DNA from: Leptotrichia sp. OH3620_COT-345
GTDB taxonomy: Bacteria; Fusobacteriota; Fusobacteriia; Fusobacteriales; Leptotrichiaceae
Assembly (NCBI RefSeq): GCF_003932895.1
Contig: NZ_RQYW01000018.1
Location: 1 to 44,580 of the forward strand
DNA length: 44,580 nt
Reading direction: 5' to 3'
The translations under genes and the position numbers were made by a program. The notes below the pieces were generated by a model. It worked only from the letters and a program-made list of their open reading frames with translations, did not search any database and was not told the DNA's origin. Positions within the stretch are counted from its first letter, which is position 1. Each line of letters opens with the position of its first letter. Positions 9,750 to 16,536 of the stretch are shown here, piece by piece.

Positions 9750-10163
9750 CTATTTCCCTTTATCTTGAAATTCAGGTTTTACAGCATTTTTATAAGGATC
9801 ATAATTATTCAGTTTGCACATAAATTCCTTTAAAAAAGAAATTTTATTTTCGCTATTCCACTGAATTAAAGACATTCCTGAAAATTCTTCACATTTTCCG
9901 TCATTTTTCATTATACATTTAAAATACCATTCTATGACAGTTTGACTTCCTTTATGGAAAAACTGTTTTATTTCCCATTTAAGCACATCTGCACGTGTAT
10001 TCCATTCATAAAACCAAAGTTTTATTTTTTCTTTTCCTTTATATTCAGGTCCCCAGCTTTCAGTATAAATAACATCATCTGAAAAAATTTTATCTATTCC
10101 TGTATCTTTCTTATGAAGCCACATATCAAACCACAGTTTTATAATTCTTTCTTTTTCTTCCAT
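9750..10163 (-). CDS. SnoaL-like / NTF2-fold protein
   Basis: 137 residues. The pattern fits the SnoaL-like group of the NTF2 fold, cone-shaped single-domain proteins that may be small enzymes or ligand binders. An N-terminal helix carries IIKLWFDMW. Then come FSDDVIYTESWGPEYKGKEK, the strand-forming WEIKQFFHKGSQTVIEWYF and the closing FSGMSLIQWNSENKISFLKE. The specific substrate is unknown. It has no signal peptide, so it is cytosolic. Start: ATG with a weak AAGTGA upstream. It lies alone between the mlaA 3' region and uvrA, with no functional partner evident. Confidence 0.75.
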   Translation of the reverse strand: MEEKERIIKLWFDMWLHKKDTGIDKIFSDDVIYTESWGPEYKGKEKIKLWFYEWNTRADVLKWEIKQFFHKGSQTVIEWYFKCIMKNDGKCEEFSGMSLIQWNSENKISFLKEFMCKLNNYDPYKNAVKPEFQDKGK

Positions 10164-10679
10164 AATTTCACTTCATTTATACTAATAATGACTCCTTTTT
10201 CATAATATTGAATATATGTCTAAATATTAACAGTGCAATAACTAAGGTTTCAAAATTATATATAGAAATATTTCCTTTGTCTGAACACTCACTTATTATA
10301 TTACTGATAAAATATATTGCATAAATTATAACATCCTTTATTTTCAATTTATAATTTGTAATATTTATATATAAATACTACAAATTAAAAAAACTAAAAA
10401 ATAACTAATCCCGTCAGTGTTTCTTTTCCGATAATATTCAGAGAAATTAAAAATATTCAGTTTCTCCTGGATTTTTATAACTTTCTGGCTATTCTATTTT
10501 CTCTACTTTTTTGATTTTCTTTTATTATAATTATTTTAAAATCTTTATTAGCTAAAGTAATATTCCATTAAAATCTATTTTTTAATTTCATATTTTTCAG
10601 ATTTCAGTTTATTTTCGGCAATATTTTAATATAAATTTATTTTCTAATCTAGTTTTTTAAAACAAAAATAAATAAGAAG
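10164..10679. other. 516-bp intergenic region, mostly featureless
   Basis: Very AT-rich; I see no supported gene. It contains the hairpin at 10352-10387 and a weaker one (GAGAAA at 10440-10445 with TTTCTC near 10460). A segment near 10618 (cggcaatattttaatataaa) vaguely resembles the dispersed-repeat core but is too weak to count. Confidence 0.5.
10352..10387 (-). terminator. Long hairpin downstream of mlaA
   Basis: AATTTGTA (10353-10360) pairs with TACAAATT (10379-10386), and an inner TATTTA/TAAATA stem closes on a TATA loop. The single A-C mismatch on the plus strand becomes a G-U pair in minus-strand RNA. No good U-run follows, so terminator function is only possible. Confidence 0.4.
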
Positions 10680-11678
10680 TTATTTTACTACCTGCAATTT
10701 TCTGTAATTATAAAATACTGCTTTCACTAAATCATATTCAAAAGGAGAATTTAAATCCCCATATCTGAAATCTACCAAAGATCGTGCATTAAGTCCTGTT
10801 ACTACAGGTCTTGTAAATCCATATACATTTTTATCAAATACACCTGTATCAAAAAACAGTTCTTTTTCAGCAGCTTTTCTTGCAGCTCCTTCCATTAAAG
10901 TATCAGGTACACTTCCTACAACATCTCTGACTGTACTTGGACCAATTACAGGCAATACAACATAAGACCCTGTCGGAACCCCGTAATATCCTAATGTATC
11001 TCCCATCGTTTCCCAATCTTTTTTTATACCTATTTTTGAAGCAACATCGGCTGTTCCCAATATCCCTACTGTAGAATTTACTACAAATCTTCCAAGTGCG
11101 TTAAATGCTTTTTTCGGTCTCAACTGTAGCAGTGAATTTACAACTGTAGGAATTTCCTTAAAATTATTATAAAAATTTGCTATCCCTTTTCTAACCGGTT
11201 TCGGAATTACCGCCTGATATACCCTCGAAACGGGATATGCCACTTTTTTATCAAACTGTGTATTAAAAGCATACATTCTTCTATTAAAAGGTTCAAAAGA
11301 ATCGTTTATTGTCATTAAATCAAACACTTTATCAGAAATAATATATTCTTCATTAAGCATATCTATATTACTGGCAATAATTCCGTATTCATCTTTATCA
11401 ATAAGTATATAACTGTTATGCTCTTTATCTTTATTCTTTTTATTGTATTTTATATTATTCTTTTTCACCTTATCTATACTTTTTCCCGGCTTCTCAATAA
11501 TATTTCCGTCTGTAAACTTAACAAATGTATCATCACTTAATTCATTTTCAATCATCTGCATTAATGCATTATTTTTTTCAGTATAAGGAATGAGAGCTTC
11601 AGGTTTTGCGGCTTCACAAATTCCCGCTGCTGTAATCAAAAGAGCTAACATAAATAACTTGTTCTTTTTATTTTTCAT
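10680..11678 (-). CDS. mlaA: MlaA (VacJ)-family outer-membrane lipid-asymmetry protein
   Basis: 332 residues. MlaA forms a doughnut-like channel in the outer membrane that removes misplaced phospholipids from the outer leaflet and passes them to the Mla pathway. The family region spans about 118-325: FEPFNRRMYAFNTQFDK, PKPVRKGIANFYNNFKEIPT, NSLLQLRPKKAFNALGRF, NSTVGILGTADVASKIG, ETMGDTLGYYGVPTGSYVVL and PVIGPSTVRDVVG. The N-terminus is a signal peptide ending AGICEAA; the Cys context is not a convincing lipobox, so it may be cleaved by signal peptidase I. There is a ~90-residue Lys/Asn/Asp-rich insert before the domain that typical MlaA lacks. The ATG is 2 nt after the stop of the hydrolase gene and its GGAGG lies inside that gene's last codons, implying translational coupling. 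No mlaBCDEF genes are in the window. Confidence 0.93.
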   Translation of the reverse strand: MKNKKNKLFMLALLITAAGICEAAKPEALIPYTEKNNALMQMIENELSDDTFVKFTDGNIIEKPGKSIDKVKKNNIKYNKKNKDKEHNSYILIDKDEYGIIASNIDMLNEEYIISDKVFDLMTINDSFEPFNRRMYAFNTQFDKKVAYPVSRVYQAVIPKPVRKGIANFYNNFKEIPTVVNSLLQLRPKKAFNALGRFVVNSTVGILGTADVASKIGIKKDWETMGDTLGYYGVPTGSYVVLPVIGPSTVRDVVGSVPDTLMEGAARKAAEKELFFDTGVFDKNVYGFTRPVVTGLNARSLVDFRYGDLNSPFEYDLVKAVFYNYRKLQVVK

Positions 11679-11680
11679 AT

Positions 11681-12979
11681 TTAATTTTCCTCCAATTTAT
11701 CTACCATTAATTTAGCAACATCTCTATGCCACAATACTCCTGTATGTCCTCCGTGAGGTATTATCACTTTGTTTTTAAAATGTTTATCAATGTATCCCAA
11801 TTCTCCTTCATTCATCAGTATATCATCTTTTGATGTTATAAATATTATTTTTTCACTATTATTCACTATAAAATCATGGCTGTTATCCAAACTGAAGTCT
11901 TTTACAAACTGCTCCATTGTCAAATCAGGATATTTGTATTTTTTCAAATATGGATATAAAATTTCTCTGGAATACTCATCAAAAGATACTGATAATCCTT
12001 CATGAAATTCCTTTGTTACTGAATCAAATCTTTTATATGTTTTTTTATCTGACAGTCTTCCCGTTGATTTATTTCCACTGAATACTTCTCCTGCAAATGT
12101 CATATTTGCTGAATAAAATCTGAACAGAAGCCCTGTCAACGCTTCAAAATCGCTATCGGTAAGTTTCAGTTTTCCCAAACTTGCAGTCAGATTTGTAAAA
12201 TCAACATCTTTCAGTTCTACTGTCTTATCGTATATTATTCTACTGAATATTCTATCAAAAAACTTTTCCAATCCCTTAGCATCATATATACCGTTTTTGA
12301 TTAAATAACTATCCAACTGTTTCGTTGCGGTAAGAATACTCACCGGGGTGTTAAGCAAAAGAGATTTATTTATTTTTATTTTACCTTTTTCTACATCTAA
12401 CTCCTGAATTAACAGTGACTGAAACCCACCCAAACTATAGCCTCCGATATTTATTTTACTTATTTTCATTCCTGATTTTTTTTCTTCTGCTATGGCTTTT
12501 ACCATCAATTCATACAAATGAGGAACTTCATCTTTTACATAGCCTGCATAGTTATTTTTACTTTGACTTACTATATAAGGCATTGTACTTGTAGAGCTGA
12601 ATGCTATGACATTATACCCTCTTTCATAAAAAACGTTAGCTATATACATGGACAATCCACTGTTATACAATGATCCTGTTCCTGAAATGAGGAGCATTAA
12701 AGGAGCCTCTTTCTTCTGTTTCCATATACCGTATTCATAATCGCCCCATTGTCTCAATATAGAAGGAATTCTCTTATTTGACTTAAATTTTTTAACTTGA
12801 GGACCTTTCGGATTCTTAAGTTTATGCCATTGCTCACTCGGTGTACCTAAAACTGTAGACATTATTGCATTGCCTTTATAAGGATAATCTTCAGCAATTT
12901 TAGATACATCAGTTTCATCAGCCTTTCCCATAACTGAAAAAATGGCAACTGTTACAATTAATAATATTTTTCTTAACAT
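11681..12979 (-). CDS. Exported alpha/beta-hydrolase
   Basis: 432 residues. A signal peptide (MLRKILLIVTVAIFSVMGKA) sends it to the periplasm. The nucleophile elbow is GYSLGG with S182. A likely oxyanion region is LMLLISGTGS at about 95-104, a plausible acid lies in ITSKDDIL, and the catalytic His is probably in HGGHTGVLWH near the end. Together these are the catalytic triad of the alpha/beta-hydrolase fold; the substrate cannot be read. It lies between smc and mlaA, 26 bp after smc and coupled to mlaA, with a clean AAGGAG before its ATG. A lipid- or acyl-ester substrate linked to MlaA-mediated phospholipid traffic is an attractive inference only. Confidence 0.85.
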   Translation of the reverse strand: MLRKILLIVTVAIFSVMGKADETDVSKIAEDYPYKGNAIMSTVLGTPSEQWHKLKNPKGPQVKKFKSNKRIPSILRQWGDYEYGIWKQKKEAPLMLLISGTGSLYNSGLSMYIANVFYERGYNVIAFSSTSTMPYIVSQSKNNYAGYVKDEVPHLYELMVKAIAEEKKSGMKISKINIGGYSLGGFQSLLIQELDVEKGKIKINKSLLLNTPVSILTATKQLDSYLIKNGIYDAKGLEKFFDRIFSRIIYDKTVELKDVDFTNLTASLGKLKLTDSDFEALTGLLFRFYSANMTFAGEVFSGNKSTGRLSDKKTYKRFDSVTKEFHEGLSVSFDEYSREILYPYLKKYKYPDLTMEQFVKDFSLDNSHDFIVNNSEKIIFITSKDDILMNEGELGYIDKHFKNKVIIPHGGHTGVLWHRDVAKLMVDKLEEN

Positions 12980-13005
12980 TTTTTCTCCTTTCGATTTTTA
13001 CATAC

Positions 13006-16000
13006 TTATACATCTACTGAAATTATTCTTGATTCTCCTATTTCCTTATTCATTGTAACTCCGTATAATCTGTGAGAACCTTTCATAGTTTCCTTATTAT
13101 GGGTTATAAGTATAAATTGAGATTTTTCTATAAATTTGTTTAAAAGTTTTACAATTTTTTTCGTATTTTCTTCATCCAATGCAGCTTCTATTTCATCAAA
13201 AAATGTGAACGGACTCGGTTTAAACATAAATATCGCCATTATAAAAGATACCGCCAACATCGACTTTTCTCCTCCCGACAATAAGAGGAGAGTCTGCTCG
13301 GGTTTGTTTTTATACTTTACACTTAATTCCAATCCTGTTTCGAGCATATTTTCATCATTCAGCAACCTTATAGCCCCTTTAGCTCCATTTAATATTGTCT
13401 TACACATATATTCAAAATTTTTATTAATTTCTTGAAATGCTGTAGAAAATTTTTCAATTATTTCATTTTCAATATCTTTTATTAATGTAAGAAGAGATTC
13501 TCTGCTTTCGATCAAATCCCTTTTCTGATCCGACAATTCATTATATCTCTTACTTTCCCTTTCATATTCGTCAATTGCTCCGAGATTTACACTTCCTATT
13601 TCCATTCTGCTTTTTTCATTCATGGAAAGTTTTCTTTTTATTGCCTGCATTTCAACTTCATTTTCAATTTTTTTATATTCAACATTCTGGAAAATATGAG
13701 GATTTTCAATATTTTCAAATTCAGTATTTAAATATTCCAGATCCTTTTCCGTTTTTGTGAAATTTTCCGATAATTTTTCATATTCACTTTTTTTAGCGAT
13801 CATTTTTACTTCAATATCTTTAATTTCTTTTATGAAATTTCTTTCTATCGTTTCATATTCTTTGATGTTTTTTTCAAAATCTCTTATTCTTTCATTCAGT
13901 TTTTCATTTTCATCATTTTTTTTTCTGATTTCTTCTTCTCTTTCGGCAATTTTCTTTTCAAAATCTATTTTCAGAATTTCCCTTTTTGTCTCAAATTCAC
14001 TTAAATCTGTCTGTTCATTTATAAGTTTAGTGTAATCTTTCTCTATTTCCTTATATCTTAACTTGTTATTATCCGTACGAACTTTAAGTATTTCATATTC
14101 TTTATCCAGTTCACTTAGCTCTTTCATATATATTGTCAGATTTTCAGATTTTTCAAGTTTATTATTTAATCCTTCTATTTTTAAATTATTTTCTGTAATC
14201 TCTTGCCGGATTTTTTCCATAATGTTTTCATTTTCAATTATTTTTTTATTCTTCAATTTTATAAAATCTTCATTTTCAGTTATTTCATAAGTAAGTGTGT
14301 CTATTTCTCTTTTTTTCCTGTTAAAATTTGATGTAAAACTGTCATACTCTTCAAAAAATTCTTTATATTCATTATCAAAAAGCCTGTATTCGGCTTCTTT
14401 TTCCTTTCTCTTTGCTTCTCCCTGTTTCAGCCTTTCATCTGTCTTTGCCGCTTCATTTTCTATCCTTTGCTGCTCTTTTCTGATAATCTCCATACTTTCA
14501 GTAATTAAATTCAGTTCTTTTTTTCTTTCCAACAGTTCGTCTTTTCCTTTTACGGAATGTCCTCCTGTCATTCTTCCTCTCGAAGTTATTATATCTCCTT
14601 CAAGAGTTACAATTCTATCATTGTATCCTTCACGCAAAAGTTTTGTTCCTGTTTCAAGATTTTTTACAACCAATGAATTTCCATAAACAAAATGTATTAT
14701 TTTTTCTATACTTTTATCATATGTTACAATATTTCTCGCAAAATCTATAACTCCCTCTTTTTTAGGAAGATTATCATTCACTTTAAAAGTTTTTATTCCT
14801 TCTACAGGTAAAAAAGATGCTCTTCCTATTTTTCTGATTTTCAGCTCTTCAATACATTTTTTACCAATTTCAATATTTGTAACTACTATATCCTGAAAAT
14901 ATCCTCCTGACAGCGTCTGAATCGCATCTTCATATCCTGACGGAATATTTATCAGATTTACAAAGGCCCCTATTACTCCGTCTATTTTTTTATTTAATAT
15001 ATATTTTGTACTTTTGACAAATGTCTCATTTTTTTCAATTATATTAATATTTGCTCGTTTTTTTGCATTTAGATTTTCATATTTATAGCTCAGTTCATTT
15101 TTTTCTTTATTCAATCCGTTATATTTTTTATGTAAAACTTCAATTACAGTATTTATATCCCGTATTTCATTTTCTACTGCATTTCTTTTATTTTCTTTTT
15201 CAATTTTCTTTTTTTCAAACTCACCTTTTTTTTCATTGATAGTATTAAATTCAGTTTCAACTTTATTTTTTTCATCTTCCAGACGTTTATTAGTATTTTC
15301 AGCAGTAAATATTCTTTTTTTTAAGTCTTCATTTTCTCCGGCTGCTTTTATTCTGTCTACTTCCAAATCTCTGTTTTTTTGAGTTTTTTCCTTTAATTCG
15401 ATTAAAATGGAATCTGTTTTATTTTTAAGCTGTGTCACTTTTTCATCAGCTTCATTTTTTTCTTTTTCCTTTTTCAAAAGAGCATCTGTTATTTTATCCA
15501 TTTCTTTCTTAGATTCATTTAATATTTCAATTTTTTCTACAATATCCTTTTCTATAACATCTTTTCTTTTCCGCTTTTCATTAGCTTCGGTTTCCAAGTT
15601 GGAATATTTATTTTTCAATTCTGCATACTCATTTTTAATATTTTCTATTTCCTTGTAAATATCAAAATTTTTATTTTTCTCATCTTCAAGTTTTTCATAA
15701 AATTTTTCTCGTTGTTCATTTATATCTTGAAGTTCTTTCTGTTTTACATTAAATTTTTTCTGAACTTCCTCTATAATATTTTTTAACTCTTCTCTTTCCA
15801 ATGAATATTTTTCCATTGCATTTTTTTTCTCATTTATATTGTATTCCAAAATCATGAGTTTATGAAGTTCAATTTTTTCAGTATACGTCTTGAAAAGTCT
15901 GGCTTTCATTCCTTCATCTTTCAGATACTTTACTCTTGTTTCCAAATCTTTTTCTACATAAGTTATTTTTTCTATTTCATTTTTTACTTCTTTCAGTTTT

Positions 16001-16536
16001 TTTTCGGAATCCTCTTTTTCAATTTTTGCCCTTTTAACTCCTGCCGCTTCTTCTATAATTTCTTTCAGTTCCTTAGGATTGGAACTTATTATCCTTTCCA
16101 CACGCCCCTGTCCGATTATGGAATATGCCTGCTTTCCGATTCCTGTATCCATAAAAAGATTATTTATATCTTTCAACCTTGCTTTTCTATTATTTATGAA
16201 ATATTCGTTTTCTCCGTTTTTATATATTCTTCTCGTAATTTTTACTTCCGAAAAATCAATATCCAGATATTTATCCTCATTTTCAATAATAAGACTTACT
16301 TCAGCCATGGATTTTGCCTTTTTATTCTTGCCTCCGGAGAAAATAACATCAGAACTTTCCTTTGCTCTTATGTTTTTATAGCTCTGTTCTCCCAACACCC
16401 ATAAAATAGCGTCTAAAATATTACTTTTTCCGCTTCCGTTAGGTCCGACTATAGATGTTATCCCTCTATTAAATTCTACAACAGTCTTATCTGCAAATGA
16501 TTTAAACCCTGAAAGCTCTAACGCCTTTAAATGCAT
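13006..16536 (-). CDS. smc: Chromosome segregation protein SMC
   Basis: 1176 residues, standard bacterial SMC length. SMC dimers with ScpA and ScpB form the condensin ring that organises and segregates the nucleoid. The N-terminal head has Walker A GPNGSGKSN (31-39) and the ELKEIIEEAAGV region. Two very long Lys/Glu-rich coiled-coil arms flank the hinge at about 505-640 (GVIGAFVNLINIPSGYEDAI, TLSGGYFQDIVV, GDIITSRGRMTGG). The C-terminal head has signature LLSGGEKSMLAVSF and Walker B FTFFDEIEAALDEENT. Start: ATG with GGAGG four bases upstream. It is the first gene of an operon with the hydrolase and mlaA; a -10 box lies in the inverted repeat upstream. Confident. Confidence 0.98.
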   Translation of the reverse strand: MHLKALELSGFKSFADKTVVEFNRGITSIVGPNGSGKSNILDAILWVLGEQSYKNIRAKESSDVIFSGGKNKKAKSMAEVSLIIENEDKYLDIDFSEVKITRRIYKNGENEYFINNRKARLKDINNLFMDTGIGKQAYSIIGQGRVERIISSNPKELKEIIEEAAGVKRAKIEKEDSEKKLKEVKNEIEKITYVEKDLETRVKYLKDEGMKARLFKTYTEKIELHKLMILEYNINEKKNAMEKYSLEREELKNIIEEVQKKFNVKQKELQDINEQREKFYEKLEDEKNKNFDIYKEIENIKNEYAELKNKYSNLETEANEKRKRKDVIEKDIVEKIEILNESKKEMDKITDALLKKEKEKNEADEKVTQLKNKTDSILIELKEKTQKNRDLEVDRIKAAGENEDLKKRIFTAENTNKRLEDEKNKVETEFNTINEKKGEFEKKKIEKENKRNAVENEIRDINTVIEVLHKKYNGLNKEKNELSYKYENLNAKKRANINIIEKNETFVKSTKYILNKKIDGVIGAFVNLINIPSGYEDAIQTLSGGYFQDIVVTNIEIGKKCIEELKIRKIGRASFLPVEGIKTFKVNDNLPKKEGVIDFARNIVTYDKSIEKIIHFVYGNSLVVKNLETGTKLLREGYNDRIVTLEGDIITSRGRMTGGHSVKGKDELLERKKELNLITESMEIIRKEQQRIENEAAKTDERLKQGEAKRKEKEAEYRLFDNEYKEFFEEYDSFTSNFNRKKREIDTLTYEITENEDFIKLKNKKIIENENIMEKIRQEITENNLKIEGLNNKLEKSENLTIYMKELSELDKEYEILKVRTDNNKLRYKEIEKDYTKLINEQTDLSEFETKREILKIDFEKKIAEREEEIRKKNDENEKLNERIRDFEKNIKEYETIERNFIKEIKDIEVKMIAKKSEYEKLSENFTKTEKDLEYLNTEFENIENPHIFQNVEYKKIENEVEMQAIKRKLSMNEKSRMEIGSVNLGAIDEYERESKRYNELSDQKRDLIESRESLLTLIKDIENEIIEKFSTAFQEINKNFEYMCKTILNGAKGAIRLLNDENMLETGLELSVKYKNKPEQTLLLLSGGEKSMLAVSFIMAIFMFKPSPFTFFDEIEAALDEENTKKIVKLLNKFIEKSQFILITHNKETMKGSHRLYGVTMNKEIGESRIISVDV

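What the first reader, a model, noticed from the sequence alone, without database searches (positions are those of the whole stretch)
10680..16536. smc, an exported hydrolase and mlaA in one operon
Gaps are 26 and 2 bp, and the mlaA ribosome site lies inside the hydrolase gene, so the pair is coupled. MlaA removes phospholipids from the outer leaflet. A periplasmic serine hydrolase made in step with it could deacylate such lipids, or process another envelope ester. The MlaA here also carries a ~90-residue charged N-terminal insert that might bind the hydrolase. Control together with SMC would tie envelope upkeep to chromosome replication.
Basis: partly seen in the sequence, partly recalled or inferred. 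Interest (0 to 1): 0.5.

Follow-up and report, generated by a model that had tools for sequence, protein, structure and literature searches.

The report
Lipase–MlaA outer-membrane pair in Fusobacteria
This is the fusobacterial form of a recently described two-gene pair (MlaY, a lipase, and MlaZ, a membrane lipid extractor) that most likely destroys misplaced lipids on the bacterial outer surface, apparently without the usual lipid-recycling machine.

Summary
The layout is as described: smc, an exported 432-aa alpha/beta hydrolase and mlaA, gaps 26 and 2 bp, mlaA's ribosome site inside the hydrolase gene. MlaA follows the hydrolase in 76 of 78 hydrolase-positive genomes among 98 Fusobacteriota and in 79 of 80 loci of a wider sample; in three genomes, one each from three phyla, both are one protein. 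None of the 78 has MlaE; the five that do lack the pair; PldA is found in 0 of 98. Hydrolase-linked and unlinked MlaAs lie on opposite sides of one branch (100/97) and differ at a C-terminal FRY…SPFEY segment, close to the region that binds MlaC in E. coli. The smc link is local synteny; the N-terminal extension is family-limited. What I did not find in print is the stand-alone MlaYZ of Fusobacteriota, the fusions and the motif. Phospholipase activity here is inferred.

The parts
11681..12979 (-). MlaY-type exported alpha/beta hydrolase (432 aa)
   Evidence: ORF; homologue of the P. aeruginosa MlaZ-linked hydrolase, E 4e-43; AF2 model pLDDT 90.3; alpha/beta-hydrolase folds up to Z 19.1
12434..12436 (-). 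S182, putative nucleophile in GYSLGG
   Evidence: invariant in A1 (24 sequences) and A5 (33 sequences); follows strand 173-181
11825..11827 (-). D385, putative catalytic acid (least certain of the three)
   Evidence: at least 90% conserved in A5; in A1 not among the invariant or nearly invariant columns, N in some f1 rows with D at 386; follows strand 378-383
11744..11746 (-). H412, putative catalytic histidine in GGHxG
   Evidence: invariant in A1 and A5; follows strand 403-407
10680..11678 (-). MlaZ-type MlaA protein (332 aa)
   Evidence: PF04333 201.1 bits; on the hydrolase-linked side of the tree
10734..10769 (-). MlaA residues 304-315, C-terminal FRY...SPFEY segment that marks hydrolase-linked MlaA
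   Evidence: the positions that separate 48 linked from 13 unlinked MlaAs are 304, 306, 312, 313, 314; motif check on further MlaAs
11307..11609 (-). MlaA residues 24-124: N-terminal extension (variable charged part, then conserved 99-124)
   Evidence: present in 10 of 10 f1 rows, shorter in 11 Fusobacteriaceae rows
11689..11693 (-). GGAGG ribosome site of mlaA inside the hydrolase gene
   Evidence: sequence
12985..12989 (-). AGGAG ribosome site of the hydrolase gene
   Evidence: sequence
13006..16536 (-). smc (neighbour; not part of the lipid system)
   Evidence: TIGR02168 826.9 bits; not next to the pair in 14 of 14 Fusobacteriaceae genomes

Best explanation
The hydrolase and mlaA form an MlaYZ-type system. 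MlaZ, an MlaA-family protein in the outer membrane, takes phospholipids that have strayed into the outer leaflet and passes them, not to a periplasmic carrier, but directly to MlaY, a periplasmic alpha/beta-hydrolase held next to it, which cleaves them. In this phylum the pair works without MlaE, so misplaced lipids would be destroyed rather than returned whole. Shown here: homology to the Pseudomonas pair, strict gene pairing, natural fusions, a conserved triad in a confident model, and no MlaE match in any pair-bearing Fusobacteriota genome held. Inferred: the lipid flow, the direct hand-over, the phospholipase activity of this protein, and the docking role of the C-terminal segment.
For: Hydrolase aligns with the P. 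aeruginosa MlaZ-linked hydrolase over residues 20-427, 26% identity, E 4e-43. Adjacent pairs in 76 of 98 Fusobacteriota genomes (77 pairs); of 78 hydrolase-positive genomes the 2 misses are one at a contig end and one with the genes on different contigs (six weak second hydrolase matches, E 4e-5 to 9e-4, in genomes that also have a strong one were left out of the count). MlaA directly downstream in 79 of the 80 kept loci of 307 found; the miss ends 118 bp after the hydrolase (at least three of these loci are genomes of the phylum set, so the two counts overlap). One open frame for both proteins in L167 (Geobacter MAG), L126 (Nitrospirae MAG) and G035 (Fusobacteriaceae). 50 linked and 13 unlinked MlaA rows on opposite sides of one branch, 100/97. 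MlaY and MlaZ distances correlate over 54 pairs, r 0.857, highest of 1000 shuffles 0.157 (shared species history contributes, and two genomes enter twice). Model pLDDT 90.3 with the triad in order. MlaE in 5 of 98, none with the pair; PldA in 0 of 98 while the E. coli control matched. In P. aeruginosa, co-overexpression of mlaYZ but not of either gene alone lowered CtpA activity (passage), and MlaY and MlaZ are proposed to extract and destroy phospholipids.
Against: No activity data for any fusobacterial member. The hydrolase scores weakly against curated families (27.5 bits; no NCBIfam hit) and by sequence against solved structures (best E 0.17). P. aeruginosa MlaY is called an outer-membrane lipoprotein in a commentary (PMC10474453); none of 28 fusobacterial hydrolases showed a lipobox. 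The genes are unlinked in G067. MlaC was not searched for; MlaD was searched in 40 genomes only, with one borderline hit under the cut-off in pair-bearing G013. The cardiolipin paper's methods list the mutants MlaA, MlaZ and MlaY as PA2800, PA3238 and PA3239, which swaps the last two against the other papers, so its labels may be mixed.
Confidence: 0.8

Rival explanations
1. The hydrolase acts on another acylated envelope molecule (lipopolysaccharide, lipoprotein, polysaccharide ester), and MlaA presents that substrate or merely co-localises it.
For: The closest folds are general esterases, thioesterases and lipases (Pf2001 esterase Z 19.1, DcsB thioesterase Z 18.5), which say little about substrate. 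No fusobacterial substrate is known to me.
Against: Strict pairing with a phospholipid-extracting family in 79 of 80 loci, and fusions; loss of cardiolipin breakdown in P. aeruginosa MlaY mutants (abstract and passages of PMC11977310, with the label doubt told above).
Confidence: 0.12
2. MlaA here is a canonical MlaA that feeds an unrecognised periplasmic carrier and inner-membrane importer, and the hydrolase is an accessory.
For: MlaA family membership; a distant transporter could escape PF02470 and PF02405; MlaC was not searched for.
Against: MlaE, found in 5 other Fusobacteriota genomes and in 16 of 20 genomes outside the phylum, is missing from all 78 hydrolase-positive Fusobacteriota genomes; MlaZ-type C-terminus instead of the canonical one.
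Confidence: 0.06
3. SMC and the envelope pair form one regulated unit that ties lipid upkeep to chromosome replication.
For: 26 bp gap in the window; smc directly upstream in 12 of 14 checked pair-bearing f1 genomes, window included.
Against: 0 of 14 Fusobacteriaceae genomes adjacent; gaps of about 18-348 bp in 11 other f1 genomes; 9 of 10 f1 genomes without the pair keep smc.
Confidence: 0.03

Closest known systems
MlaYZ of Pseudomonas aeruginosa (PA3238-PA3239; [quoted passage not shown]
   Same: Same gene order and close spacing (3 bp in plasmid record L058), homologous hydrolase over nearly its full length, MlaA-family partner on the same side of the tree.
   Different: P. aeruginosa also has a canonical Mla pathway with its own MlaA; the fusobacterial genomes with the pair lack MlaE. 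MlaY is described there as a lipoprotein; no lipobox in 28 fusobacterial hydrolases. The f1 MlaZ has a longer N-terminus (110-129 against 69 residues before the conserved D). The plasmid record bears no PA number: I equate its hydrolase with PA3238 from its place before the VacJ/MlaA gene and from recall of the PAO1 gene order.
Canonical Mla pathway (MlaA-MlaC-MlaFEDB, E. coli)
   Same: MlaA domain; three distinct PDB MlaA sequences match at E 3.6e-20 to 6.8e-20.
   Different: No MlaE in pair-bearing Fusobacteriota; the window protein ends at the place aligned with E. coli residue 227, where the MlaC-binding tail begins.
PldA outer-membrane phospholipase
   Same: Same proposed job: removal of misplaced phospholipids by cleavage (passages).
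   Different: PF02253 found in 0 of 98 Fusobacteriota and not among the Pfam hits of the window hydrolase or its P. aeruginosa homologue.

Membership tests
MlaYZ system | Hydrolase homologous to MlaY over its length | tested here: met
   residues 20-427, E 4e-43; identity of the plasmid gene with PA3238 rests on gene order
MlaYZ system | MlaA-family gene directly downstream | tested here: met
   76 of 78 hydrolase-positive Fusobacteriota genomes
MlaYZ system | Partner MlaA groups with hydrolase-linked MlaAs, not with unlinked ones | tested here: met
   one branch, 100/97, 63 rows
MlaYZ system | Ser-Asp-His triad in an alpha/beta-hydrolase fold | tested here: met
   model and conservation; acid D385 less strictly conserved in f1
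MlaYZ system | Phospholipase activity fed by MlaZ | not testable with these tools
   no assay
MlaYZ system | MlaY anchored as outer-membrane lipoprotein (reported for P. aeruginosa; varies among homologues, so not taken as defining) | tested here: not met
   no lipobox in 28 of 28 fusobacterial hydrolases nor, by eye, in the window protein; pattern present in the P. aeruginosa and Skermanella hydrolases
Canonical Mla pathway | MlaE permease in the genome | tested here: not met
   no match in the window's genome
Canonical Mla pathway | MlaD in the genome | tested here: not met
   no match in the window's genome
Canonical Mla pathway | MlaC in the genome | not tested
PldA | PF02253 domain | tested here: not met
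   0 of 98 genomes; not among hits of the hydrolase

The most novel reading that the evidence does not exclude
The MlaA family has two partner codes written at its C-terminus. Canonical MlaAs end in a segment with DKY/DPY, followed in E. coli by a tail, that hands lipid to MlaC for recycling; MlaZ proteins carry FRY…SPFEY there and hand lipid to MlaY for destruction. Most Fusobacteriota run on the second code alone: a destruction-only outer-membrane asymmetry pathway that stands where other families of the class keep an MlaE transporter. In some lineages donor and enzyme have become one protein.
Probability: 0.4. Interest if true: 0.68.

Novelty: new variant of a known kind. Interest (0 to 1): 0.5.

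Why it matters
It says what MlaA does in a phylum of diderm bacteria far from Proteobacteria where the recycling permease is absent; a 2024 review passage lists MlaA as an outer-membrane lipoprotein of F. nucleatum (PMC11784454), but by clade and partner the fusobacterial protein is of the MlaZ kind. It also makes the question 'how does an MlaA protein choose between recycling and destruction?' testable with a dozen residues and natural fusions.

Tried and rejected
SMC coupling: rejected as local synteny. N-terminal insert as docking site: not supported, since partners without it pair as strictly. Viral contigs: 5 pattern matches, none a relative. Promoter and terminator scan of 10300-13400: 13 promoter-like sites against 17.0 expected, 1 terminator-like against 1.0, so no information. 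Sequence search of the hydrolase against PDB: best E 0.17; a fold comparison was needed. The viral structure library was not used. In the fold comparison of the fused protein the rows cover the hydrolase part only; MlaA chains are not listed there. That model came without an error matrix or coordinates, so pTM 0.80 is only weak support for a fixed arrangement; stretches under pLDDT 50 include the linker (452-488) and parts of MlaA (601-607, 609-639, 642-644). Residue co-evolution between the two proteins was not computed. Against the tail argument: 3 of the 13 unlinked MlaAs (L181, L182, L186) end without a long tail, so a tail as such is no general mark of the canonical type; only the DKY/DPY against FEY difference holds throughout. 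MlaAs left out of the tree and checked for the motif only: second MlaA of L189, and those of L207, L208, L209 and L205.

Literature. I saw titles and abstract starts, and passages of ten papers. (MlaY) lists 40 of 997 papers, mostly unrelated words; (MlaZ or MlaYZ) lists 8 of 8; one search found none. No listing or passage that I saw describes MlaYZ in Fusobacteriota or hydrolase-MlaA fusions. The library is open-licence only and the founding PNAS paper is not held, so it may already report a wider distribution.
Full report
What is there. Three minus-strand ORFs lie in a row: smc (13006-16536), a 432-aa hydrolase (11681-12979) and mlaA (10680-11678), with gaps of 26 and 2 bp. The GGAGG of mlaA (11689-11693) lies within the hydrolase gene. 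SMC and MlaA match their families clearly; the hydrolase matches Abhydrolase_1 only just. The window is contig C18 of a 2.5-Mb genome, 99.56% complete. Its family (f1 in the tool's labels) is unnamed; I take it for Leptotrichiaceae from recall and genome sizes, not from a call. Family f4 is Fusobacteriaceae: two of its contigs have the lengths of named Fusobacterium and Cetobacterium records, and the tree labels give that family.

Is the pair real? Among 40 relatives the hydrolase and MlaA occur in the same 28 genomes. Among the 98 Fusobacteriota genomes held, a hydrolase match is found in 78 and MlaA in 77. In 76 genomes (77 pairs) MlaA follows the hydrolase on the same strand within 500 bp (six weak second hydrolase matches were left out). 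The two misses are G052, where the hydrolase runs into a contig end, and G067, where both genes exist on different contigs. In 26 genomes read in detail and one F. vincentii record, the start of mlaA lies between 17 bp before and 4 bp after the end of the hydrolase stop codon; a 27th genome has a fusion (start codons are my choice). In the wider collection of one genome per species, 307 relatives were found with a query made of Fusobacteriaceae and P. aeruginosa sequences, and the best 80 were kept; 79 of these 80 have MlaA directly downstream, and the other ends 118 bp after the hydrolase. The sample was drawn by hydrolase similarity, many are Pseudomonas, 227 were not seen, and at least three loci (L094, L095, L097) are genomes of the phylum set. 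By record or tree labels they come from Fusobacteriota, Pseudomonadota, Thermodesulfobacteriota, Nitrospirota and, for one 'Deltaproteobacteria' MAG, Myxococcota. Plasmid records show the pair in P. aeruginosa and Skermanella; in a third P. aeruginosa record the match is in two pieces and no hydrolase gene is annotated.

Fusions. In L167 (Geobacter MAG), L126 (Nitrospirae MAG) and G035 (Fusobacteriaceae) hydrolase and MlaA are one open frame, with linkers of differing length and sequence. Three phyla and unlike linkers point to separate events, though assembly errors cannot be excluded; the other two genomes of the G035 genus show one unfused pair (G078) and no pair (G077).

What the hydrolase is. 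It aligns with the hydrolase that precedes the VacJ/MlaA gene of a P. aeruginosa plasmid record over residues 20-427 (26% identity, E 4e-43). That record bears no PA number; I equate the two genes with PA3238 (MlaY) and PA3239 (MlaZ) from their order, from PA3239 being listed as a VacJ protein and from recall. The AlphaFold model, from 33 sequences, has mean pLDDT 90.3 and pTM 0.89; S182, D385 and H412 follow the expected strands. S182 and H412 are invariant in both large alignments; D385 is at least 90% conserved in one and N in some f1 rows of the other, where D follows at 386, so the acid is the least certain member. The nearest solved folds are esterases, thioesterases, peptidases and lipases at 10-16% identity; Foldseek's list also holds monoglyceride lipases and a bacterial membrane phospholipase A, 6i8w. 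The fold does not fix the substrate.

What MlaA is. In a tree of 63 MlaA rows, 50 hydrolase-linked and 13 unlinked ones fall on opposite sides of one branch (100/97; 100% of 200 bootstrap trees; two fusobacterial genomes enter twice). The unlinked rows are the best MlaA of those 13 of 30 fetched loci that have no hydrolase beside it. So MlaZ looks like an old, separate lineage that stays with its hydrolase. Comparing 48 linked with 13 unlinked proteins, the positions at least 85% conserved in the linked with that residue in at most 20% of the unlinked are 304, 306, 312, 313 and 314 of the window protein, the FRY…SPFEY segment near the C-terminus; F313 and E314 are present in 98% of linked rows and in none of the unlinked. 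The linked row without them is L126, a fused protein in which a short stretch is missing there. Four other linked rows have FEY without the P (L089, L090, L097, L149). In one search none of the unlinked canonical-type MlaAs has the motif, four of them new (L207, L208, L209, second MlaA of L189), and all newly fetched linked ones have it (L211-L216, seven MlaAs, L216 being the L097 gene again). The one unlinked MlaA that has it, FRYYQSASPFEY, is that of G067 (L205), whose hydrolase lies elsewhere in the genome. So the motif goes with presence of the hydrolase rather than with adjacency. E. coli MlaA has SDPY at that place and goes on with a further tail; MacRae et al. report that its residues 226-251 are predicted to reach MlaC and that deletions 238-251 and 244-251 abolish binding (passages). 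The window protein ends at the position aligned with E. coli residue 227. But 3 of the 13 unlinked MlaAs also end without a long tail (L181, L182, L186). A docking role for SPFEY is my inference.

What is missing. MlaE is found in 5 of 98 Fusobacteriota, all without the pair: the single members of f2, f3, f5 and f6 and one genome of f4 (G073, a fragment at a contig edge). MlaD was searched in 40 genomes: clear hits in 2 (G024, G025, which also have MlaE) and one borderline hit below the cut-off in pair-bearing G013. PldA is found in 0 of 98; the E. coli control matched. MlaC was not searched. Fifteen genomes have neither the pair nor MlaE: ten f1 genomes of 1.2-1.9 Mb and five f4 genomes, several of them incomplete. 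Of 22 genomes reached through loci, two are Fusobacteriota without MlaE; of the other 20, 16 have MlaE and four MAGs (L104, L126, L138, L149) show none, so elsewhere the pair usually coexists with the canonical permease.

Mechanism. Papers that cite Guest et al. say that in P. aeruginosa MlaZ removes misplaced phospholipids and passes them to MlaY for destruction (passages), and that MlaY mutants do not degrade cardiolipin after sphingosine treatment (abstract and passages). That last paper, PMC11977310, calls MlaY a PldA homologue and an integral membrane protein, which the sequence does not support, and its methods pair the names MlaZ and MlaY with PA3238 and PA3239 in that order, against the other papers, so its labels may be mixed. 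By homology the window pair should do the same work. Because pair-bearing Fusobacteriota lack MlaE, lipids taken up by MlaZ would have no known way back whole; what happens to the products is open. The single-chain fold of the L167 fusion gave pTM 0.80 over 701 residues; by my rough estimate that would be hard to reach if only the hydrolase part were placed, but no error matrix was available. Neither protein of the window has a convincing lipobox by eye; a scan found none in 28 hydrolases and a possible one in 6 of 27 unfused MlaAs of other Fusobacteriota, so attachment to the membrane probably rests on MlaA's own shape.

SMC and the insert. smc lies directly upstream in 12 of the 14 pair-bearing f1 genomes that were checked (window included), is elsewhere in G004, and cannot be judged in G020; it is adjacent in 0 of 14 Fusobacteriaceae. 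Gaps, from aligned ends, run from about 18 to 348 bp in the 11 others. The N-terminal extension is found in 10 of 10 f1 rows, is poorly conserved over residues 24-98 (31%) and better over 99-124 (54%), and is shorter in the others.

Verdict. A fusobacterial MlaYZ, probably the only Mla-type pathway in most of the phylum. The kind is known; the stand-alone setting, the fusions and the C-terminal code are what I did not find described in the papers I could search.

Noticed in passing
L057 and L061 (Skermanella plasmids): The pair sits in a row with an RND adaptor, an RND permease and a hypothetical protein upstream and a TamB-domain protein downstream, as if lipid bridging, extraction and cleavage were one cluster.
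   Followed up: no
L126:4908-7199: The fused Nitrospirae protein lacks the stretch that holds the SPFEY motif, while the other two fusions keep it.
   Followed up: partly
L213 (G081): Two hydrolase-mlaA pairs in tandem.
   Followed up: no
L189 (G104, Geobacter): An MlaZ followed by a second MlaA of the canonical type on the same strand.
   Followed up: partly
L062 (P. aeruginosa plasmid record): The hydrolase match is in two pieces and no hydrolase gene is annotated, while the VacJ gene is; possibly a broken copy.
   Followed up: no
G021:C1:920684-924306: The smc region of this relative comes as two pieces, each with an in-frame stop; sequencing error or decay not resolved.
   Followed up: no
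PMC11977310: The paper describes MlaY as a PldA homologue and integral membrane protein, and pairs MlaZ and MlaY with PA3238 and PA3239 in the order opposite to other papers.
   Followed up: partly
window 9750-10163, minus: A 137-aa SnoaL_2-like protein follows mlaA after about 500 bp.
   Followed up: no
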